64,000 bases of DNA, from the NCBI RefSeq assembly GCF_900107455.1, contig NZ_FNQB01000001.1, positions 2,232,001-2,296,000 of the forward strand. Reading direction: 5' to 3'. The position numbers and the translations under genes are program-made. This document shows, one piece after another, positions 4,667 through 14,986 of the stretch. The notes beneath the pieces are model-generated. The model worked only from the letters and a program-made list of their open reading frames with translations. It made no database searches and was not told the origin of the DNA. Source of the DNA: Asanoa ishikariensis. Its GTDB lineage: Bacteria > Actinomycetota > Actinomycetes > Mycobacteriales > Micromonosporaceae. Within the stretch, counting starts at the first letter, position 1; every line of letters begins with the position of its first letter.

Positions 4667-5407
4667 ATGAGCGACGTTCTGGTCACCGGGGGCACCGGAA
4701 ACCTGGGCCGGGTGGTGTGCGACAAGCTGCGGGAGTCGGGTCACGAGGTGCGGGTGCTCAGCCGGCGGCCGCAGCCGGGCCAGTCCGTCCGGGGCGACCT
4801 GCGCACCGGCGAGGGCATACCGGCCGCCGTCGAGGGAATCCGGACGGTCTTCCACCTGGCCACCGCACCGCGCGGCGACGTCGAGGCGACCTCGCGGCTG
4901 ATCGCGGCGATCGGCCCCGGCGACACCCACCTGGTCTTCACCTCGGTCGTCGGCGTCGACCAGATCCCGCTCGCCTACTACACCGCCAAGGCCGAGTGCG
5001 AGCGGCTGATCGAGACCTCCGGGCTGCCGTTCACGATCCAGCGGGCCACCCAGTTCCACAGCCTGCTGCTCCGCGGGTTCCACCTGCAGCGCCGGATCCC
5101 GGTCCCGATGGTGTTCGCGCCCAACTGCGACTTCCAGCCGATCGACGTGCACGACGTCGCCGACCGCCTGGTCGAGCACGTCGACGCGGGGCCGCGGGAG
5201 CGGGTGCCGGACATCGGCGGCCCCGAGGTCCGCTCGGCCCGCTCGCTGGCCCAGTCCTACCTGACCGTGTCCGGCCGGCACCGCCGGGTCGTCGGCGTCG
5301 CCCTGCCTGGCCGGATCTACTCCGCCTTCCACGCCGGCGCGCACCTGACCCCCGACCACGCGCACGCGGGCCTGACCTTCGAGGACTTCCTCGCCGAGCG
5401 GTTCTAG
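4667..5407 (+). CDS. NAD(P)-binding NmrA-like / atypical SDR protein
   Basis: The 246-residue Rossmann protein begins VLVTGGTGNLGRVVCDKL (a TGxxGxxG dinucleotide loop) and has VFTSVVGVD and YYTAKAECERLIETSGL, where YxxxK is the usual atypical-SDR Tyr/Lys pair. The family includes NmrA-like redox sensors and NAD(P)H:quinone oxidoreductase-like enzymes; the substrate is unknown. The ATG at 4667 is preferred over 4649 because a GGGGGA lies at 4651-4656 at normal spacing. It is divergent from the excalibur gene and overlaps the stop of the convergent NACHT/WD40 gene by 4 bases. Confidence 0.82.
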   Translation: MSDVLVTGGTGNLGRVVCDKLRESGHEVRVLSRRPQPGQSVRGDLRTGEGIPAAVEGIRTVFHLATAPRGDVEATSRLIAAIGPGDTHLVFTSVVGVDQIPLAYYTAKAECERLIETSGLPFTIQRATQFHSLLLRGFHLQRRIPVPMVFAPNCDFQPIDVHDVADRLVEHVDAGPRERVPDIGGPEVRSARSLAQSYLTVSGRHRRVVGVALPGRIYSAFHAGAHLTPDHAHAGLTFEDFLAERF

Positions 5408-8400
5408 ACGGCCAGACCCAGTAGCCCGCGGTCAAGACCGATGACCAGGGTGCCGGCGGCGTACGCGCAGGACAGCGCGCGATGGTGCACCGGGATCGCG
5501 CGGACGCAGCGGCCGGTGACCGGATCCCAGAGCCGCACCGTCCGGTCCAGGCTGGTCGAGGCGACCAACTGCCGCCCGCCGGGCACCGGCAACGCGCAGA
5601 CCCCCGTCACCGCGGCCGTGTGCCCGGCCAGCACGTGGTGCGGGCGCCCGTCGGCCGGATGCCAGAGCCGGACCGTGCCGTCCGCGCCACCGGAGACCAG
5701 CAGGTCGCGGTCGTCGGCGGTGACCGTGCCGAGCGCGTCGACGGCGTCGGTGTGCGCGAGCTGCTGCCAGCGGGTGCCGCCGTCGAGGTCCCAGAGCCGG
5801 ACCGTGCCGTCCTTGTCGGCGGAGGCCAGCAGCTCGCGGCCGCCGAGCCGCACCGTGGTCAGCGCGGTCACCCAGCTTCGGTGGCCGAGTAGCACTCCGT
5901 AGGGCGATCCGTCGCGCGGGTTCCACAGCCGCACCGTGTCGTCGTCGGCGCCGGTCGCGACCAGCACCAGCCCGCCGGCGTTGACCGCGCAGATCGCGTT
6001 GACCCGCTCGTGGTGGTCGGCGAGCTCCGGACCGGCGCTGCCGTCGCGCAGGTCCCAGAGCCGCACCACGTGGTCGTCGCCGCCGGTGGCCAGCAGCGGC
6101 GCGTCGGCGTCGGGCACCGCGCAGACCGACGTGACCGCGCCCTCCCGGACCGGCAGGCGGGCCAGTGCGGCGCCGTTGGCCGGGTCCCAGATGCGCACGG
6201 TGCCGTCGGTGCCGGTGGACACCACCGCCGTGCCGCCGCGGAACGGCACCGCACGTACGGCGGCCACCGGACCCAGCCGGCCGCCGGCCAGCACCGACTC
6301 GGCCTGCCGGGTCACCGGGTCCCAGAGCCGGACCGTGCCGTCGTCGCCCGCGGTCGCGAGCAGGTCGCGGTCGCGGACCCGCAGTGTGCACACGGCGCGG
6401 ATCCAGCTCACGTCGCCGCGCAGGCTCGGCCGGGGCGTGCCGCTGCGGGCGTCCCAGAGGTGCAGCACGCCGCTCTCGTCCGTGGCGGTGAGCAGGACGG
6501 TGCCGTCGACCTCGACCGTGCACAGGTCCGTCAGCGGACCGGCCTGCGGGTCGATCGCGCTGAGCAGGTCGCCGGTCAGCGGGTTCCAGAGCCGCACCAC
6601 GCCGTCGTAACCGGCCGACGCCAACGCCACGCCGCCGCCGGCCCGCACCGCGCAGAGCGTGGTGGCCCAGCCGTCGTGCGCGACCACCGCGGTGGTGCAG
6701 GCGCCGGTCACCGGGTCCCAGAGTGCGATCACGCCGTCGAAGCCGGTCGCCGCGACGAGGCCGTGCGGCCCGACCGGCAGGTGGGTGACCGCCGTGGCCC
6801 AGCCGCCGAACCCGGTCAGCGAGTGCACGAGCGTGCCGTCGGCGGGGTTCCAGATCCGCACGGTGCGGTCGTCGCTCGCGGACGCCAGCAGCGTCGCCGC
6901 GCCGGGGACCGGCACCGCGCAGAGGTTGCGGACCCAGTCGGAATGACCGGTCAGGGTACGCAGGTGCGCGCCCGTGCCCGCGTGCCAGACGCCGATGGTG
7001 CCGTCGTGGCCGGCGGTGGCGAGCAGCGTGCCGTCCTCGACCTCGACCGCCCACACGCCGCGTACCCCGTCGGCATGCCCGGCCAGCACCCGCTCCACCC
7101 GGCCGGTCAGCGGGTCCCAGATCCGGACGGTGCCGTCCGCGCCGGCGGAGGCGAGGAAGTCGCGCCCGTCCATGGGCACGGCGCAGACGTCGTACACGGC
7201 GTCGGAATGTCCTTCTAGGACGGTCCGTTCGAGTCGCGGCGGGGTGTGCGCCCAGCGCGCCCGGTAGGCGGCGTCCTCCGTGACGGGCGCGCTGCCCAGC
7301 CGGTCGAGCCGGTCGACGACCGAGAACAGCGCCGCCCGCTCGGCCGGTGCGGCGTGCGCGGCCAGCGGCGTCCGGCGCAGCAACTGGACGCGGGCCAGCC
7401 CTTCGCGGGTGTCGGCCACCTCGGCGGCGGAGAGCAGACCGGCGAGATGGGCGTGCAGCACGTACGCGTCGTCGTTGAGCAAGGTGTCGACCAGGCCGGC
7501 CCGGTCGGCGTGCCGGGGCAGCATGCCGAGCAGGTAGTCGGGCGCCGAGGCCCAGCCGGCCGCGTGGCCGTGCCGGACCCAGGCGTAGAGCAGGTCGCGC
7601 TCGTCGTCGGCGCGGGCCGCCACCGTCGCGCGCGCGGCCAGCAGCGCGTCGTCGAGCGCCCGGTGCCGCAGCCGGTAGACGCCGGATGGCCCGTGTTCGC
7701 TGCTGCCGTGCTCGACCTGTCCGTGCTCGACCAGGGATGTGGTGGCCTGGGCGAAGGCGGCCAGGTCGTCGTCGGTGACGCGGCCGCCGAGCGCCTCGAT
7801 CGCGACCCGCCAGAGCCGCAGCGGCAGCCCGGGCGGCTCGGCGAAGGACAGCGCGGTCAGCGCCAGCCGGGCCGAGGTGGCGCCGGCGGGGGAGACGCCG
7901 CCCAGGTAGGCGTCGAGCGCCTCGGCGACGGACGCGGTGGACGCGACCCGGTGCGGGTCGACCGGCACGGCGTCGTTGCGGCCGTGCGCCCCGGCGACCA
8001 GGCCGGCGACGAGGAAGTTGCCGCCGGCCAGCGTGGCGATCCGGCGGGAGACCGGCTCGGCCCGCTCGGCGTCGGCGTACGGGTTGTCGGCGCGACCCTT
8101 GCTCTCCAGCCGCAGGGTGGCCATCGCGTGCGTGGCGAGGTCGGCCATGTTGACGTGCTCGGCCGAGTCGAGGTCGACCACGTCCGCGGCGGCCCCGAAC
8201 GCGCCCAGCAGGTCGCCCTGCTCGTCGGTCGGCCGGGTGCCGACGACGACCCGCACGCCGAGCAGGTCGCCCTGTTCCGCCAGCGGCACGAGCACCGTGC
8301 GGATGAGCTCCCGGGCCTGCGTGGGGGAGGCCGCCTCGTCGAGCGCGTCGATCACCAGGTTGAACCGGTCCGGCCGGGTGGCGAGCCGGTCGCGCAGGTG

Positions 8401-9348
8401 GGGCAGGAGGTCGCCGGGTACGGCGGGCAGCGCCGCCGACGCCGCGACGGCGATCTCGGTGGCCACCGCCAGGGCGTCCTTGCCGGCGGCGTGCACGGCG
8501 CAGGCGACGCTGCCCCGCGCGGCGGTGTCGCCGGGATCGAGCCGGGCCGCGGCGGCGTCGGCGGCGGTCACGATCCGGCCGAGCACGGCCGACTTGCCGA
8601 CCCCCGGAGCACCGGTGACCACCAGCAGGCGGCCGTCCGGACCGGGCCGGTCGAGCCAGTCGCCGACCACCCGCAGCACGGCGGCGCGGCCGCGGAACCC
8701 GTCTGTCCGGGTCCAGCCCCAGGCGGCGACGGCCTGTTCGCCGGCCGCGTCGAGCCGCCAGCCGGCCAGCGCGCCGAGCTTGAGGTCCGGCAGCGCGTCG
8801 CCGAGGCCGGTGGCGCGACCGTCACCACCGGCCGGACCCGCGGTGGCCGCCTGGACGACCAGCCCGACCACCGCCTGATAGTCGGGGGACCACAGCGGCG
8901 CGCCCGCGAACCCGGGCGCCAGACCGGTGCTGACGAGGCGGACCTGGCCGGTGTCGAACGGGTCGCCGACGGTGCCCTGTGCCGGGCGGCCGGCCGGGTC
9001 GTGGTCCGGGAAGCCGAACGACCACCACGGTCGGCCGGCGAGCTTGGCGAGCGGCGCGAGCCTTACCCGGGCGGGCCGCACCGGGTCGGGCACCGGGCCG
9101 TCGAGCGCGAGCAGGGCGAGGTCGGAGTCGCTGCCCTGGACCACCTGGCGGACCCGCGTGCGACCGAGCCCGGCCAGCGGAAAGCCGACCCAGAGCTCGT
9201 CGCGCGGCCGGCCACCGGACCGAACCAGTTGCGCGCAGGTGAGCACCCGGTCGGGCGCGACGACCACGCCGGCACCGATCGGCGTGGGGCTCTCCGCCGA
9301 CCCGTGGATCGCCACGACCCAGGGGAAGCTCGGCGGTGCGGCCCTCAT
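5404..9348 (-). CDS. Trypsin-like pseudo-protease / NACHT NTPase / 14-blade WD40 protein
   Basis: The 1314-residue protein has three parts. Residues 1-225 form a trypsin-fold domain, but the usual TCAHV is TCAQL (Gln40 at the His position) and the usual GxSGAP is GFAGAP (Ala148 at the Ser position); the Asp region (SDSDLALL) remains. Residues about 228-700 form a STAND/NACHT module with Walker A GAPGVGKS (246-253) and Walker B LVIDALDEA (331-339). From about 760 to the end come 14 WD40-type units (DGTVRIWDP and variants), the last one incomplete, enough for two seven-blade propellers. STAND proteins of this architecture sense a ligand through the propeller and oligomerise on NTP binding. The N-terminal effector looks catalytically dead, so it may act as an adaptor. 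Start ATG 9348 has GGGGAGGAG upstream. It is divergent from 9596. Confidence 0.9.
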   Translation of the reverse strand: MRAAPPSFPWVVAIHGSAESPTPIGAGVVVAPDRVLTCAQLVRSGGRPRDELWVGFPLAGLGRTRVRQVVQGSDSDLALLALDGPVPDPVRPARVRLAPLAKLAGRPWWSFGFPDHDPAGRPAQGTVGDPFDTGQVRLVSTGLAPGFAGAPLWSPDYQAVVGLVVQAATAGPAGGDGRATGLGDALPDLKLGALAGWRLDAAGEQAVAAWGWTRTDGFRGRAAVLRVVGDWLDRPGPDGRLLVVTGAPGVGKSAVLGRIVTAADAAAARLDPGDTAARGSVACAVHAAGKDALAVATEIAVAASAALPAVPGDLLPHLRDRLATRPDRFNLVIDALDEAASPTQARELIRTVLVPLAEQGDLLGVRVVVGTRPTDEQGDLLGAFGAAADVVDLDSAEHVNMADLATHAMATLRLESKGRADNPYADAERAEPVSRRIATLAGGNFLVAGLVAGAHGRNDAVPVDPHRVASTASVAEALDAYLGGVSPAGATSARLALTALSFAEPPGLPLRLWRVAIEALGGRVTDDDLAAFAQATTSLVEHGQVEHGSSEHGPSGVYRLRHRALDDALLAARATVAARADDERDLLYAWVRHGHAAGWASAPDYLLGMLPRHADRAGLVDTLLNDDAYVLHAHLAGLLSAAEVADTREGLARVQLLRRTPLAAHAAPAERAALFSVVDRLDRLGSAPVTEDAAYRARWAHTPPRLERTVLEGHSDAVYDVCAVPMDGRDFLASAGADGTVRIWDPLTGRVERVLAGHADGVRGVWAVEVEDGTLLATAGHDGTIGVWHAGTGAHLRTLTGHSDWVRNLCAVPVPGAATLLASASDDRTVRIWNPADGTLVHSLTGFGGWATAVTHLPVGPHGLVAATGFDGVIALWDPVTGACTTAVVAHDGWATTLCAVRAGGGVALASAGYDGVVRLWNPLTGDLLSAIDPQAGPLTDLCTVEVDGTVLLTATDESGVLHLWDARSGTPRPSLRGDVSWIRAVCTLRVRDRDLLATAGDDGTVRLWDPVTRQAESVLAGGRLGPVAAVRAVPFRGGTAVVSTGTDGTVRIWDPANGAALARLPVREGAVTSVCAVPDADAPLLATGGDDHVVRLWDLRDGSAGPELADHHERVNAICAVNAGGLVLVATGADDDTVRLWNPRDGSPYGVLLGHRSWVTALTTVRLGGRELLASADKDGTVRLWDLDGGTRWQQLAHTDAVDALGTVTADDRDLLVSGGADGTVRLWHPADGRPHHVLAGHTAAVTGVCALPVPGGRQLVASTSLDRTVRLWDPVTGRCVRAIPVHHRALSCAYAAGTLVIGLDRGLLGLAV

Positions 9349-9595
9349 CGCTCCTCCCCGTGCTAGCTCAGCTGACCGAATGGCTATCGTGCCCGGCCTG
9401 GCCGTTGCTAGGCAATATCGGCCCCTGCCGACTCGTCCGAACGGTTGCCGTGACCTTGCTTTTGGCCAGGGCTTATGGAGATCCACACCCGACAGTGATG
9501 TCGGATATCGGAAAACCCGGAGTGGACCTTGCTACCACGTTGGGTAGCTGGGGAGAATCGGCACGGTTCGCGCCCACCCTGACAGGAGCATCGGC
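9349..9595. promoter_or_regulatory. Divergent intergenic region of the conflict locus
   Basis: The 247 bases separate the NACHT/WD40 gene (minus) from the winged-helix gene (plus) and must hold promoters for both. No strong palindrome or textbook -35/-10 pair stood out. The coding starts on each side have clear ribosome sites only on the minus side (GGGGAGGAG). Confidence 0.4.
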
Positions 9596-10207
9596 ATGTC
9601 CGACGAGAAGCCGGTCACCTTCGCCATGCGCTGCATGCTGGTCATCCTGATGGCCGAAGCCCGCGAGCTGCCCAACGCGCGGATCGCCGACCGGGGTCTG
9701 GACCTGAAGAAGGAATACCGGGACCGCCTGGTCAGCCGGGGCTGGATCACGGTGCGCAAGGTCGGCCGGGGATACAGCCTCGAGCTCACGGAGGCCGGCT
9801 GGGCCGAGGCGATCGGGCAACTGTCCGCCGACCCGCCGGCGGGTGCCGGGGCCGGGGGTGCGGCACTTTATACCGTGCTCAATCGGCTGCGTGGTTTCCT
9901 CGACCGGTCCGACCTGGCGGCGTCCGAGCTCTTCGCCCCGGCCGAGAGCGACATCGACGTGCGCATCCGCAAGGCGTACGCGGAGATCGCCGTCAGCGCC
10001 GGTGAGCTGGTGTCGCTCGCGGCCCTCCGCCCACGTGTGACCGGCGCGGAGCGGGCCGGCGTCGACGCCGCCCTCGTCGCGCTGAGCACCGCTCCCGACG
10101 TGCGGATCGTCCCGGAGTCCAACCAGAAGACGCTCTCGGCGGAACAGCGCGACGCCGCCGTGCGGATCGGCAACCAGGACAGGCACTTGATCGCTATCGG
10201 TGTGTGA
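9596..10207 (+). CDS. Winged-helix protein of unknown function, partner of dual ATPase
   Basis: The 203-residue protein is not a family I can name. Residues about 8-75 look like a winged helix: helices MRCMLVILMAEA and IADRGLDLKKEYRDRLVSRG, then a wing WITVRKVGRGYSLELTEAG. The C-terminal part (about 90-203) is mainly helical and ends in a conserved-looking block PESNQKTLSAEQRDAAVRIG followed by NQDRHLIAIGV. It ends 43 bases before the dual-ATPase gene on the same strand, so the two are probably one operon. A plausible role is substrate or DNA adaptor, or regulator, for the ATPase; that is inference from position only. Confidence 0.75.
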   Translation: MSDEKPVTFAMRCMLVILMAEARELPNARIADRGLDLKKEYRDRLVSRGWITVRKVGRGYSLELTEAGWAEAIGQLSADPPAGAGAGGAALYTVLNRLRGFLDRSDLAASELFAPAESDIDVRIRKAYAEIAVSAGELVSLAALRPRVTGAERAGVDAALVALSTAPDVRIVPESNQKTLSAEQRDAAVRIGNQDRHLIAIGV

Positions 10208-10250
10208 GTGACGCGAGGCGGCTCGGTGCCTGAGGACGGGTAGGACAACG

Positions 10251-13200
10251 ATGGACGAGGTCGAGCGCCGGGCACTCAAGGCACTCCGGTTCAACTGGGC
10301 GCCGACGCCCGACGACGTGTGGCGGCAGCCGTCGTTCCACGTCGAGGGGCTGCACCGGGACGCCCTCCGGGTGATCCTCGACGGCGTCGAAGACGCCGAC
10401 CGCAGCGCCGACTCGAGCCCCGTCGGCGTCGCCGTGCTCGGCCAGCGCGGCAGCGGCAAGACCCATCTGCTCGGCTCGGTGCGCCAGCACGTACAGGCCG
10501 GTGGTGGCTATTTCTTCCTGGTCAGCCTGTTGGAGGCCAGCGCGTTCTGGCGCAGCACCGCACTGTCCATCCTGGACGGCCTCAACCGTGAGACGGCCGA
10601 GCGGGAGAGCCAGTTGCGGACCTTCCTGCGCCGGCTGGCCGACCTGATCGGCGCGCCGCGGGCGGTGCGGCGGGCGGTGACCGGCGAGGCCGAGCTGACC
10701 CGGCCGATCCTGGACGCGTTCGTCGACCTGCTGCGCAAGCACAACAGGCAGGTCGGCATCGACTGCCAGGACACGGCGCGGGCGATGGTGCTCCAGGCCG
10801 CCGACAAGCTCGGTGACCAGGACGTCGGCTACGAGTTCCTGTGCTCCAACGACGAGCTCGAGCCCGGTCAGCGGGCCGCGTGGGGGATGCGCCGGGCGCG
10901 GCGGTCCGCGCAGGAGATCGTCCGCGACATCTCGCGACTGCTGGCCCTGACCGGCCCGACCGTCATCGCGGTCGACCAGATCGACCTGCTGATCAACCAG
11001 GCGGCGAAGTCGCTCGACGGCGAGACCCGCCTGGAGTGGCGCGCCGCGCTGCTGCTGGAGCAGATCGCCGGCGGGCTGATGGCACTCCGCGAGACCACCC
11101 GCCGCACGCTGTCGGTCGTTGCCTGCCTCGACGAGTCGTGGTCGCTGGTCAAGACCCAGGCCACCGACACCGTCCAGGACCGGTTCCGGGAGGCGGTGCA
11201 GCTCCGTCAGATCGGCAGTGCCGAACTCGGCCGGGAGCTGATCGCCCGGCGCTTCGCGGAGCCGTTCAACGACCAGGGCTTCGTGCCGGCGTACGCCACC
11301 TGGCCCGTGCGGGCCTCCGCTTTCGTCGAGGCGGTCCAGTTCACGCCGCGCGAGCTGCTGCGCACGATCGACACCCACGTGCGGGGCTGCCTGCGCGACG
11401 AGACCGTGCGCGAGATGCTGCGCCTGGTGCACGACTCCGTGGCGGGTCCGGCGGTGGTCACAGAGGAACCGACCACCGACGACGAGTTGGCCGCTGTCGA
11501 CGCCCGGTTCGCGGCGCTGCTCGGGGCAGCGGACGCTTCGGCGGCGCTCGACCCGGCGACCGAGGACGTGGTCGTGCCCGAGTTGCTCGAGGCCGGCCTG
11601 ACCGCCTGGATCGGCTCGCGGGGTGGTGCGGGGGAGCTGTTCGGGCTCGACCCGCACCCGGGCAGCAAGCCGGCACTGCACGCGCGGCTGCGGCGCAGCC
11701 TCGACGAGCGCACCGAGGACGAGGAGCACTGGGCGTTCCGCGTCATCGGTGCCCGGCACCCGATCGCGGCGCTCAACAGGATCCGCAACGCCAGCACGGC
11801 CGCCGGCCTGACCGAGGGCGTAGCCAAGCGCAAGCTGTTCTTCCTCCGCAACGAGCCGTGGTCCGGCGGCGCGCGGACGACCGAGGTGATCGAGACGTTC
11901 AGCCGGGCCGGTGGGCGCACGCTGGCGTTCCCGGAGAGCGACGTGGTCGCCCTGGTCGCGCTGCGACAGCTTCTCCGCGAGCGCGGGTACGAGACGCTGC
12001 GGCCGTGGTTCGTCAGCCGCCAGCCGGCGGATCGGGTCGCGTTCCTGCGCGAGGCACTGGCGGGGGCGGACTCGGTCCCTCCTGCGGCGGCGGTTGATGC
12101 GCCGGTGCCGGTTGGTCCCGCCGGTCCGGAGCTGCCGGCGGCTCCGCCTGCGGCGGTCAGTCGGGCCAGGCAGGCGGGGCTGTCCGTGGTGGGCGGCTCG
12201 GCGATGGCAGGCGGTGCTGGGGCCGAGGGCGGCCCAGCGGTGCGCGCCGTCTCGGCGGTCCCGGATGCGTCGGGCGCGGCGGTCCCGAGCGAGCCCGCTG
12301 CCCCGGGTGGCCCTGCGGGGCAAAAGGGTGCGGCCGAGTCGGCTGGTCCGGCGGTGCGCGGTGGCTCGGCTTCGTCGGGCGGGCCGGCGGTTCCGGGTAG
12401 TTGGGCGGCTCGGGATGGTGCTGCCGCCGCGGGTGGTTCGGCGGTGCGCGATGGCGCGGCTTCGTCGGGCGGGCCGGCGGGTCCAGGTGGTTGGGCCGCT
12501 CGGGATGGTGCGGCCGCCTCGGGTGGTCCGGCGGTGCGCGATGGTGCGGCCGCGGCGGGTGGTCCGGCGGTGCGCGATGGCTCGGCTTCACCGGGTGGGC
12601 CTGTGGTTCCGGGTAGTTGGGCGGCGCGGGAAGGTGCGGCCGCGTCGGGTGGCTCGGTGCGCGACGCTTCGGCTTCGCCGGGTGGGCCGGCGGCTCCCGG
12701 CAGTTGGGCCGCGCGGGACGGTGCCGCCGCGTCCGGCGGCTCCGCGGTGCGCGACGGCTCAGTCTCGCCCGGTGGGCCGGCGGCCCCAAGCGGTTGGGCC
12801 GCGCGGGACGGCTCGGCAGTGCCTGGTGGCCGGGACGCTGCGACTCCGGCGGTCGGGCCCGTCAGCCCGGCTGCACCGACGCTCGCGACTGTCCGAAGGC
12901 TGCCGGTGCGCGTACCCCGCGATGATCGGGATCCTGGTTCGGTGATGCTCGGGCAGTCGGTTCAGGACGGCCGGTCGGTGTCGGTCGAGCTGGCGGCCCT
13001 GCGCCGGCATGCGGCGATCTTCGCCGGCTCCGGGTCGGGCAAGACCGTGCTGATCCGGCGGCTGGTCGAGGAGTGCGCGCTGCGTGGCGTGTCGTCGATC
13101 GTGCTGGACCCCAACAACGACCTCGCGCGGCTCGGTGACCCGTGGCCCCAGCCGCCGGCCGCCTGGGACGAGCTCGAGACGGCCCGGGCGGAGGCGTACC

Positions 13201-14180
13201 ACCGGAACACCGACGTCGTGGTCTGGACCCCGCGGCGGACCGCGGGTCGGCCGCTGAGCTTCCGGCCGCTGCCCGACTTCGCCGGCATCCTCGACGACCC
13301 GGACGCGTTCGCCGCCGGCGTCGACGCCGCCGTGGCGTCGCTCGCGCCGCGGGCCAACGTCGACGGCGCCTCCGCGAAGGCCCGCATCGGCAATGCGGTG
13401 TTGCGGGAGGCGCTGACCGCGTACGCCCGCGGTGGTGGAAGTGACCTTCGCGAGTTCGTCCTCTATCTCACCCGGTTGCCGGCCCGCGCCAGCCAGCTCG
13501 ACAACGCCCCGAAGGTCGCCAACGACATCGGCCAGCTCCTGCGCGCGACGATGGTCAGCGACCCGCTCTTCGGCGGTGACGGCGCGCCGCTCGACCCCGG
13601 TGAGCTGCTGCGCCCCGCGCCGGGCTTCCGTGCCCGGGTCTCGGTGATCAGCTTCATCGGCCTGCCCGACGACGGTCAGCGGCAGAGCTTCGTCAACCAG
13701 CTCCAGCTCGCGCTGTTCGCCTGGATCAAGCGCAACCCGGCCGGCGACCGCCCGCTCGGTGGCCTGTTCGTGATGGACGAGGCGCAGACCCTGGCCCCGT
13801 CCGGCGCGATGACCGCGTGCACGCAGAGCACGCTGGCGCTGGCGTCGCAGGCCCGCAAGTACGGGCTCGGGCTGGTGTTCGCGACGCAGGCGCCCAAGGG
13901 GCTGCACAACCGGATACCCGGCAACGCGGCGACGCAGCTGTTCGGCCTGCTCAACAGCCCGACCCAGATCGAGGCGGCGAAGGAGATGGCGCGGGCCAAG
14001 GGCAGCGACATCTCCGACGTGGCCCGGCTGCGCCCGGGCGTCTTCTACGCCGCCGTCGACGGTGCCGGCTTCGCCAAGCTGCGGGCGCCGCTGTGCCTGA
14101 GCCACCACCCGGCCAGCCCGCTCACCGTCGAAGAGGTCATCGCCCGCGCCCAGGACCCAGAAGAAGACGACGACGAATAA
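10251..14180 (+). CDS. Dual ATPase: AAA/STAND-like domain + repetitive linker + HerA/FtsK-type ATPase
   Basis: The 1309-residue protein contains two P-loop engines. The N-terminal one has Walker A GQRGSGKT (64-71) and a Walker-B-like strand TVIAVDQIDLLI (about 237-248). The C-terminal one has GSGSGKT (about 926), VLDPNNDLARLG, the Walker B LFVMDEAQTLAP (about 1170) and the sensor ATQAPKGL, which together mark the HerA/VirB4/FtsK family of DNA-pumping ATPases (DUF87-like). Residues about 610-880 are a Gly/Ala/Ser/Pro linker with tandem units (see repeat). The tail is acidic (EEDDDE). HerA ATPases act as hexameric DNA or RNA translocases, often with a nuclease; no nuclease is fused here and the upstream winged-helix gene is the only obvious partner. 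Confidence 0.85.
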   Translation: MDEVERRALKALRFNWAPTPDDVWRQPSFHVEGLHRDALRVILDGVEDADRSADSSPVGVAVLGQRGSGKTHLLGSVRQHVQAGGGYFFLVSLLEASAFWRSTALSILDGLNRETAERESQLRTFLRRLADLIGAPRAVRRAVTGEAELTRPILDAFVDLLRKHNRQVGIDCQDTARAMVLQAADKLGDQDVGYEFLCSNDELEPGQRAAWGMRRARRSAQEIVRDISRLLALTGPTVIAVDQIDLLINQAAKSLDGETRLEWRAALLLEQIAGGLMALRETTRRTLSVVACLDESWSLVKTQATDTVQDRFREAVQLRQIGSAELGRELIARRFAEPFNDQGFVPAYATWPVRASAFVEAVQFTPRELLRTIDTHVRGCLRDETVREMLRLVHDSVAGPAVVTEEPTTDDELAAVDARFAALLGAADASAALDPATEDVVVPELLEAGLTAWIGSRGGAGELFGLDPHPGSKPALHARLRRSLDERTEDEEHWAFRVIGARHPIAALNRIRNASTAAGLTEGVAKRKLFFLRNEPWSGGARTTEVIETFSRAGGRTLAFPESDVVALVALRQLLRERGYETLRPWFVSRQPADRVAFLREALAGADSVPPAAAVDAPVPVGPAGPELPAAPPAAVSRARQAGLSVVGGSAMAGGAGAEGGPAVRAVSAVPDASGAAVPSEPAAPGGPAGQKGAAESAGPAVRGGSASSGGPAVPGSWAARDGAAAAGGSAVRDGAASSGGPAGPGGWAARDGAAASGGPAVRDGAAAAGGPAVRDGSASPGGPVVPGSWAAREGAAASGGSVRDASASPGGPAAPGSWAARDGAAASGGSAVRDGSVSPGGPAAPSGWAARDGSAVPGGRDAATPAVGPVSPAAPTLATVRRLPVRVPRDDRDPGSVMLGQSVQDGRSVSVELAALRRHAAIFAGSGSGKTVLIRRLVEECALRGVSSIVLDPNNDLARLGDPWPQPPAAWDELETARAEAYHRNTDVVVWTPRRTAGRPLSFRPLPDFAGILDDPDAFAAGVDAAVASLAPRANVDGASAKARIGNAVLREALTAYARGGGSDLREFVLYLTRLPARASQLDNAPKVANDIGQLLRATMVSDPLFGGDGAPLDPGELLRPAPGFRARVSVISFIGLPDDGQRQSFVNQLQLALFAWIKRNPAGDRPLGGLFVMDEAQTLAPSGAMTACTQSTLALASQARKYGLGLVFATQAPKGLHNRIPGNAATQLFGLLNSPTQIEAAKEMARAKGSDISDVARLRPGVFYAAVDGAGFAKLRAPLCLSHHPASPLTVEEVIARAQDPEEDDDE
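12350..12850 (+). repeat. Tandem coding repeats in the dual-ATPase linker
   Basis: Within the ATPase gene a unit of roughly 30 codons recurs about five times with small changes. In protein form it alternates GSWAARDGAAASGG and PAVRDGSASPGGPA. At the DNA level, GCGGTGCGCGATGG and GGTGGTCCGGCGG recur. The units stay in frame, so gain or loss would lengthen or shorten the spacer between the two ATPase domains without breaking the gene. Confidence 0.75.
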
Positions 14181-14911: not shown

Positions 14912-14985
14912 GGGGCCGTAGCTCAGCCGGTTAGAGCAGGGGACTCATAATCCCTCGGTCGCGGGTTCGAGCCCCGCCGGCCCCA
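14912..14985 (+). tRNA. tRNA with anticodon CAT (Met, or Ile2 after lysidine modification)
   Basis: The cloverleaf is complete at 74 bases: acceptor GGGGCCG pairing with CGGCCCC, D stem GCTC/GAGC, anticodon stem GGGGA/TCCCT around loop CTCATAA, T stem GCGGG/CCCGC around TTCGAGC, and discriminator A. The CCA end is not encoded. Anticodon CAT with ACTCATAAT context occurs both in elongator tRNA-Met and in the isoleucine tRNA whose C34 becomes lysidine; the initiator type is excluded by the normal first base pair (G1-C72). I cannot decide between Met and Ile2 by eye. Confidence 0.93.
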
Positions 14986-14986
14986 C

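What the first reader, a model, noticed from the sequence alone, without database searches (positions are those of the whole stretch)
9596..14180. Candidate undescribed two-gene system: winged-helix protein plus AAA-linker-HerA double ATPase
A 203-residue winged-helix protein with an unfamiliar C-terminal block and a 1309-residue protein containing both an AAA-type ATPase and a HerA/FtsK-type translocase are adjacent (43 bases apart) and divergent from a STAND sensor protein. HerA-type ATPases recur in anti-phage systems, normally with a nuclease, Sir2 or DUF4297 partner. None is present here, and the fusion of two motors is not an architecture I can name.
Basis: partly seen in the sequence, partly recalled or inferred. 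Interest (0 to 1): 0.75.

Follow-up and report, generated by a model that had tools for sequence, protein, structure and literature searches.

The report
Nuclease-less HerA module beside NACHT gene
A DNA-binding protein and a double ATPase are encoded side by side in nearly every relative examined, joined by interchangeable partner genes of anti-virus type; in this genome's copy the usual DNA-cutting partner is missing and a NACHT-WD40 protein, built like animal immune sensors, stands in its place.

Summary
In detail: a 203-aa winged-helix protein (9596-10207) and a 1309-aa AAA-linker-HerA ATPase (10251-14180) lie 43 bases apart, divergent from a trypsin-NACHT-WD40 gene (5404-9348). The pair is a fixed unit: 146 of 153 loci examined carry both, next to each other. 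The partner varies. Of 144 non-duplicate loci, 77 have a DUF559-type nuclease gene, 26 the NACHT-WD40 gene, 10 AbiU/AIPR, 9 a P-loop (perhaps STAND) gene without nuclease, 6 PDC-M55, 5 PDC-M02, 2 CARF-HEPN, 9 none seen. The NACHT loci form one clade among nuclease loci, so the nuclease was probably replaced once. The window's genome also has a nuclease-bearing paralogue (L016). The kind is not undescribed: Rakesh et al. 2024 (PMC10853773) predicted 'HerA/FtsK capture' systems of Orc/CDC6 AAA+, restriction-type nuclease, HerA and wHTH. The window looks like a nuclease-less variant, and its trypsin domain lacks the catalytic His and Ser. Most likely role: anti-invader defence, the NACHT-WD40 protein sensing and the wHTH-AAA-HerA motor acting on DNA. 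Partner exchange supports defence; the mechanism is inference. No flanking gene tested matched a defence model.

The parts
9596..10207 (+). 203-aa protein, apparently two winged-helix domains (about residues 9-76 and 119-201)
   Evidence: ORF; AF2 model; Foldseek hits are mostly MarR/ArsR-type winged-helix proteins, prob up to 1.00, best E 1.4e-2, matched residues not stated; directly upstream of the ATPase in 146 of 153 loci
10251..14180 (+). 1309-aa AAA-linker-HerA double ATPase
   Evidence: ORF; Pfam AAA_22 and DUF87; PADLOC mad8 E 2.8e-19 on the HerA half
10251..11420 (+). N-terminal AAA+ domain, probably Orc1/Cdc6/TnsC-like; Walker B reads DQxD
   Evidence: AF2 model of residues 1-610, pLDDT 81.8; Foldseek ranks 1, 3 and 5 are TnsC and Cdc6/Orc1 at prob 1.00, ranks 2 and 4 are Cdc48 at 0.92 and 0.85, all E about 2e-3 to 4e-3; DQ in 135 of 135 aligned relatives
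11463..12050 (+). middle alpha/beta domain, possibly the inactive REase of published capture systems
   Evidence: order of strands and helices in the model; no nuclease-type invariant residues seen and no profile match to the DUF559 nuclease (hhalign probability 0.2%)
12075..12911 (+). A/G/P/S-rich repetitive linker, variable between species
   Evidence: tandem repeats with 90- and 126-base periods; composition; alignment
12912..14153 (+). HerA/FtsK-type translocase domain, Walker A GSGSGKT, Walker B DEAQ
   Evidence: DUF87; GKT in 135 of 135 and DEA in 135 of 135 aligned relatives
5404..9348 (-). divergent trypsin (His and Ser missing)-NACHT-WD40 gene
   Evidence: Trypsin_2 E 9.6e-11, NACHT E 6.7e-6; 11 WD40 stretches; Walker A/B intact, His and Ser absent; first 720 residues have no second match in this genome at E 1e-10
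9489..9504 (.). inverted repeat CCGACA-4-TGTCGG in the divergent promoter region; its inner arms (CGACA/TGTCG) are kept in six Asanoa-clade loci
   Evidence: the surrounding 34-base block occurs once in the genome with up to 3 mismatches

Best explanation
The window holds a nuclease-less variant of the HerA/Orc-Cdc6 type of anti-invader system. Shown by gene-neighbourhood comparison: the wHTH gene and the AAA-HerA gene are a fixed pair, partner genes of defence type are exchanged around it, and in one clade a divergent trypsin-NACHT-WD40 gene, usually with Trypco1, is present and the nuclease absent. Inferred: the wHTH protein and the AAA ring load the complex on DNA; the AAA ring, whose Walker B always reads DQ, is a nucleotide-bound switch or scaffold rather than a fast hydrolase; HerA pumps DNA. 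In nuclease-bearing relatives the DNA is delivered to the nuclease. In the window the NACHT-WD40 protein senses the invader, its trypsin domain is a leftover or adaptor, and the wHTH-AAA-HerA motor itself acts on invader DNA (blocking, displacing or halting replication or packaging) or brings the cell to dormancy.
For: Fixed pair: (146 of 153). Partners that match known or candidate defence families, one representative each: AbiU E 8.3e-112, PDC-M02A/B 4e-71 and 4.8e-141, PDC-M55A/B/C 3.9e-153, 3.7e-65, 7.3e-222, CARF-HEPN 1.7e-131, DUF559 E 2.3e-11; other members by profiles grown from these. At least 11 changes of partner class by parsimony on one quick tree of 135 ATPases. NACHT stays while outer flanks vary: 18 families among 26 left-hand and 21 among 24 right-hand outer genes. 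HerA motifs intact. Trypsin His and Ser absent. Patchy spread: 36 of 296 genomes of the class, four of them weak HerA-only; 93 of 150 of the family.
Against: No function was tested. Eight of the window's flanking genes match no PADLOC model at E 1e-5, so the locus is not in an evident defence island. One relative's ATPase found no match in 50,697 phage records and 3 of 72,556 plasmid records, one of these an 11.9-Mb record, so mobility is modest; in Asanoa (6 loci) and another clade (4 loci) the left flank is shared, that is, vertical descent. No catalytic effector other than the motors and the NACHT NTPase is visible, so the blocking step has no direct support. The Orc/Cdc6 assignment is weak: Cdc48-type folds rank second and fourth. 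Nine of 144 loci show no partner (two are cut by contig ends).
Confidence: 0.6

Rival explanations
1. The NACHT-WD40 protein is the executor and the wHTH-AAA-HerA complex is the DNA-side sensor: HerA stalling on invader DNA triggers NACHT oligomerisation, as in STAND-type abortive infection.
For: The NACHT gene occurs where the nuclease gene is absent, in one clade among nuclease loci. In the 18 Trypco1 loci where it can be read, residues aligned with the trypsin His, Asp and Ser are present, so there it may be a working protease effector.
Against: In the window, five other Asanoa-clade loci and L007 the His and Ser are missing or the domain is deleted, leaving NACHT and WD40, which are usually sensing and assembly domains (recalled).
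Confidence: 0.3
2. A chromosomal DNA-handling machine (segregation, conjugation or repair), not defence.
For: HerA/FtsK domains serve such roles; in one genus (L048, L079, L080, L082) and in Asanoa the locus keeps its neighbourhood; weak matches to CedD, TraD and terminase models; no defence gene among eight flanking genes tested.
Against: Patchy presence, several copies in some genomes, partners of AbiU, CARF-HEPN, PDC-M02 and PDC-M55 type, a copy between ribosomal-protein genes in a Tsukamurella plasmid record. I noticed no relaxase or transfer gene as a constant neighbour, by eye only.
Confidence: 0.1
3. Two independent systems side by side: the pair works alone or has lost function, and the NACHT-WD40 gene is merely co-located.
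For: The genes are divergent, not one operon; nine of 144 pairs have no partner seen.
Against: 26 loci of the clade over several genera keep the NACHT gene while most outer flanks differ; no second match to its first 720 residues in the genome; purifying selection.
Confidence: 0.14

Closest known systems
Orc/CDC6-coupled HerA/FtsK capture systems (Rakesh, Aravind, Krishnan 2024, PMC10853773; sections 22 and 26 read whole, other passages)
   Same: AAA+ of probable Orc/Cdc6 type, HerA/FtsK, wHTH and, in 77 of 144 relatives, a restriction-type nuclease, in one or several polypeptides; predicted anti-invader role; NACHT fusions to related Orc/CDC6 copies are mentioned
   Different: The window has no such nuclease and a separate trypsin-NACHT-WD40 gene. 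The main text holds none of the words trypsin, WD40, DUF559 or AIPR; its supplements could not be read here
MADS, protein Mad8 (PADLOC model mads_8)
   Same: best PADLOC model for the HerA half: E 2.8e-19 here, 4.5e-25 in the own paralogue
   Different: no other MADS model matched the window's three proteins at E 0.1; the AAA half is not covered
DUF4297-HerA (PMC11291478, abstract and outline seen) and Sir2-HerA, NurA-HerA (recalled)
   Same: HerA motor plus a separate effector
   Different: here HerA is fused to an AAA domain and paired with a winged-helix protein; HerA models match only in part
BREX-related capture (BRC) systems (PMC12839542, passages)
   Same: HerA/FtsK with Orc/Cdc6 AAA+, a wHTH-type protein and a STAND NTPase
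   Different: BRC has seven components including PglZ, DUF6079 and DUF4007; none appears in the Pfam lists of the window's three proteins (third list cut at 25 of 50)
Trypco-trypsin conflict systems (Kaur et al. 2020, PMC7159879, passages)
   Same: Trypco1 gene beside a trypsin-domain gene
   Different: there described with MoxR-vWA ternary systems; here beside wHTH-AAA-HerA

Membership tests
Orc/CDC6-HerA/FtsK capture system | Orc/CDC6-clade AAA+ ATPase | tested here: inconclusive
   AAA+ is clear; TnsC (7ufi) and Cdc6/Orc1 (2qby) rank 1 and 3 at prob 1.00, E 2.1e-3 and 2.6e-3, but Cdc48 ranks 2 and 4, and nothing is below E 1e-3; Pfam ORC-CDC6-like only E 0.058
Orc/CDC6-HerA/FtsK capture system | HerA/FtsK domain | tested here: met
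   DUF87 E 2.2e-10; motifs intact
Orc/CDC6-HerA/FtsK capture system | wHTH component | tested here: met
   winged-helix gene
Orc/CDC6-HerA/FtsK capture system | inactive REase inserted between AAA core and C-terminal wHTH | tested here: inconclusive
   middle domain has a fitting element order; no profile match to the DUF559 nuclease; that part alone was not searched by fold
Orc/CDC6-HerA/FtsK capture system | active REase (the paper says 'usually') | tested here: not met
   window: nuclease profile found nothing in 1049 translated stretches; relatives: 77 of 144 loci have it
Orc/CDC6-HerA/FtsK capture system | HerA domain in the paper's clades 2, 4 or 5 | not tested
   the paper's alignment was not available
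MADS | set of eight mad genes (recalled) | tested here: not met
   only mad8 matched among the three proteins; eight flanking genes gave no PADLOC match; the rest of the window was not scanned
DUF4297-HerA / Sir2-HerA | stand-alone HerA with a DUF4297 or Sir2 partner | tested here: not met
   no such domain in the matches of the two proteins; HerA is fused to an AAA domain
DndFGH | DndF, DndG and DndH proteins | tested here: not met
   no Dnd or Dpt model among the matches of the three proteins

The most novel reading that the evidence does not exclude
The wHTH plus AAA-HerA pair is a general plug-in DNA-motor platform around which at least six unrelated partner types are swapped, and in Micromonosporaceae an NLR-like trypsin-NACHT-WD40 protein has replaced the nuclease, giving a defence system in which a DNA translocase and a bacterial NLR work as one. 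Within it, the protease was disabled in two lineages together with loss of Trypco1, leaving a form with no hydrolytic effector except the motors.
Probability: 0.45. Interest if true: 0.82.

Novelty: new variant of a known kind. Interest (0 to 1): 0.6.

Why it matters
If right, one DNA-pumping core serves many immune outputs, and an NLR-type protein can take the place of a nuclease. It also ties several unexplained candidate defence genes (PDC-M02, PDC-M55, AbiU) to one shared motor in actinomycetes, and offers a natural test of what Trypco1 does, since its absence goes with death of the neighbouring protease. All of this can be tested in laboratory Streptomyces.

Tried and rejected
Chance neighbour: rejected by 146 of 153 loci for the pair and by the NACHT clade with mostly differing outer flanks (script 97 stopped with an error after printing these counts, the rest was redone). 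Middle domain as relative of the DUF559 nuclease: hhalign probability 0.2%. Sequence match of the AAA half to solved structures: best E 0.029, to a radical-SAM chain; the whole ATPase matches solved HerA-type helicases only in part (best E 2.5e-5, residues 1148-1264). The wHTH profile matched calmodulins (best E 0.0044), taken as chance. PHROGs gave only partial hits to the ATPase: two of unknown function (6.4e-12, 8e-4), terminase 1.5e-11, Zot-like 0.0018. A wHTH operator for the whole family: the palindrome is in 8 of 144 loci with 500 upstream bases, all Asanoa clade, two of them duplicates, so it is local. Island boundary at tRNA-Met 14912: a tRNA-Met is also downstream in L005, L006 and, turned round, L136 and L140, not in L145, so it is more likely old synteny. 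L060-L063 match only HerA and have no wHTH; not counted as members. Partner identities rest on one or two representatives per class; others were assigned by profiles grown from them. PDC-M55 component C was seen in 2 of 6 loci only. The 638-aa and 588-aa 'STAND' partners have no Pfam, PADLOC or NCBIfam match; the name rests on a P-loop seen by eye. Loci L087-L186 are 100 places chosen from the listed matches, whose list was cut; several genomes give more than one locus. Dropped before counts: duplicates L137 (=L005) and L142 (=L006), judged by equal contig length and genus; nine more of the 144 were left out of the 135-row tree (split, short or degenerate ATPases). Viral contigs was not scanned.

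Full report
Observation. The ATPase has an N-terminal AAA domain (AAA_22, E 2.2e-8) and a C-terminal HerA-type domain (DUF87, E 2.2e-10), joined by about 280 residues of A/G/P/S-rich repeat. Of 13 aligned relatives only the window and L005 have a long linker. dN/dS is 0.12-0.17 against L005 and 0.21-0.31 against L006. The divergent protein matches Trypsin_2 (E 9.6e-11) and NACHT (E 6.7e-6, a hair under the curated score) and WD40 (11 stretches).

The 203-aa protein. An AlphaFold2 model on 12 sequences (pLDDT 80.2, pTM 0.44) shows two winged-helix-like domains. Foldseek finds mostly MarR- and ArsR-type winged-helix proteins, probability up to 1.00 but E no better than 0.014, and does not say which of the two domains matched. 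So the 'unfamiliar block' is probably a second winged helix.

The AAA domain. A model of residues 1-610 (pLDDT 81.8) gives TnsC and Cdc6/Orc1 at ranks 1, 3 and 5 with probability 1.00, and Cdc48 at ranks 2 and 4 with 0.92 and 0.85 (E 2e-3 to 4e-3). Orc/Cdc6 type is therefore likely, not shown. Its Walker B reads D-Q-x-D in 135 of 135 aligned relatives; HerA's G-K-T and D-E-A are kept in 135 of 135. I infer a nucleotide-binding switch or scaffold joined to an active pump.

The pair is fixed. A pattern scan of the genome collection (84,980 species) gave 11 loci; all 11 have the wHTH gene directly upstream. Searches of 296 genomes of the class (36 with a match, four of them weak and HerA-only) and 150 of the family (93 with a match), plus plasmid records (3 of 72,556), led to 153 loci, of which 146 carry both genes on one strand with at most 106 bases between the matched parts. 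The seven others are cut or fragmentary (L043, L049), degenerate (L055) or distant HerA-only (L060-L063). A plasmid of the alphaproteobacterium Methylobacterium aquaticum (L084) has nuclease, wHTH and AAA-HerA in the same order, so the unit crosses phyla. The loci are not all independent: several genomes give two or more, and 100 were picked from a cut list.

Partners change. With two duplicates removed, 144 loci divide into: DUF559-type nuclease 77 (nine also with a P-loop 'STAND' gene, one with CARF, one with a RAMA-CBS gene), trypsin-NACHT-WD40 26, AbiU/AIPR downstream 10, 'STAND' alone 9, PDC-M55 6, PDC-M02 5, CARF-HEPN 2, none seen 9 (L089 and L120 of these are cut by contig ends). Nuclease and NACHT gene never occur together (0 of 146). 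Representatives were identified by Pfam and PADLOC. Eleven aligned nucleases keep invariant E, D and E-x-D residues, as restriction-type nucleases do (recalled). On one quick tree of 135 ATPases the classes need at least 11 changes; the tree has long branches and weak forks, and parsimony cannot tell gain from loss.

The window's class. The 26 NACHT loci lie in one clade of 27 with L089, cut at a contig end, among nuclease-bearing rows (10 of 10 in one starred clade in the smaller tree). The outer genes mostly differ: 18 families among 26 left and 21 among 24 right neighbours; six Asanoa loci and four loci of another clade do share their left neighbour. The window's genome holds no second match to the trypsin-NACHT part at E 1e-10, but has a nuclease-bearing paralogue of the pair with a RAMA-CBS gene downstream (L016). 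The simplest reading is one replacement of the nuclease by a NACHT gene. Eight flanking genes of the window match no PADLOC model, so the locus does not sit in an evident defence island.

A dead protease. A Trypco1 gene lies between the NACHT and wHTH genes in 19 of 26 loci (Pfam-checked in L009, PF19493). In 18 of these, residues aligned with the trypsin His, Asp and Ser are present; the nineteenth (L088) has a split gene whose His and Asp could not be read. Pfam's trypsin model matched the window but not L009 or L010, the two Trypco1 loci tested, so the triad there rests on my alignment and recalled motifs. In all 7 loci without Trypco1 the His and Ser are missing (WIN, L005, L006, L007, L140, L145) or the trypsin domain is gone (L136). 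These are two lineages on the tree, Asanoa and L007. So the window's trypsin domain is very unlikely to be a working protease, though the gene stays under purifying selection.

How it probably works. Shown: a conserved pair, exchange of partner genes, absence of the nuclease and of the catalytic trypsin residues in the window. Inferred: wHTH and AAA load the complex on DNA, HerA pumps, a partner acts. In the window the only enzymes left are the motors and the NACHT NTPase. I favour NACHT-WD40 as sensor and the motor as the part that acts on DNA; the reverse is the main rival.

What is known. Eight searches of the paper library gave one clear match in kind: Rakesh et al. 2024, PMC10853773, whose section 22 (read whole) describes neighbourhoods with an Orc/CDC6 ATPase, an inactive REase, an active REase, HerA/FtsK and wHTH, in one or several polypeptides, and predicts an anti-invader role. 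It mentions NACHT fusions to related Orc/CDC6 genes; its main text holds none of the words trypsin, WD40, DUF559 or AIPR. A 2026 paper (PMC12839542, passages) adds BREX-related capture systems. Supplements and papers outside the open library were not readable, so I cannot say that this variant is absent from print. In PADLOC 2023 the best model for the ATPase is Mad8 of MADS, on the HerA half; the wHTH protein has only weak CARF-type hits.

Verdict. A real, conserved, probably defensive unit; a new variant of a known kind, not an undescribed kind. The spread of partners and the NACHT-for-nuclease exchange are the interesting parts.

Noticed in passing
26 NACHT loci; window 5404-9348: Absence of the Trypco1 gene goes with loss of the trypsin His and Ser or of the domain (7 of 7), its presence with triad-like residues (18 of 18 readable), in two lineages.
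   Followed up: partly
window 9489-9504: Inverted repeat within a block of 36 identical of 39 columns in the divergent promoter region of six Asanoa-clade loci; a candidate operator.
   Followed up: partly
L055-L059 (one unnamed genus): Diverged ATPase copies; in L055, L057 and L058 about 110 residues of the HerA domain are missing and the linker is long. All five lie beside divergent genes that look like Ser/Thr protein kinases by eye.
   Followed up: no
L085; also L072 and L075: The three-gene unit lies among ribosomal-protein genes: between rplN and rpsQ with VapBC and a DEAD-box helicase gene in Tsukamurella; near such genes by eye in L072 and L075. A possible insertion hotspot.
   Followed up: no
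L125, L134, L135, L176, L183, L184: PDC-M55 A and B genes sit next to the pair (component C seen in L125 and L184 only), in four of the six with a further gene that looks Abi-like by eye but has no family match.
   Followed up: partly
L006:14297-15781: A gene resembling a serine recombinase by eye overlaps the tRNA-Met downstream of the unit; in the window a tRNA-Met is at 14912-14986.
   Followed up: no
L016:13597-14955; also L152 and L153: RAMA-CBS protein directly downstream of the own-genome paralogue; related genes lie next to the pair in L152 and L153.
   Followed up: no
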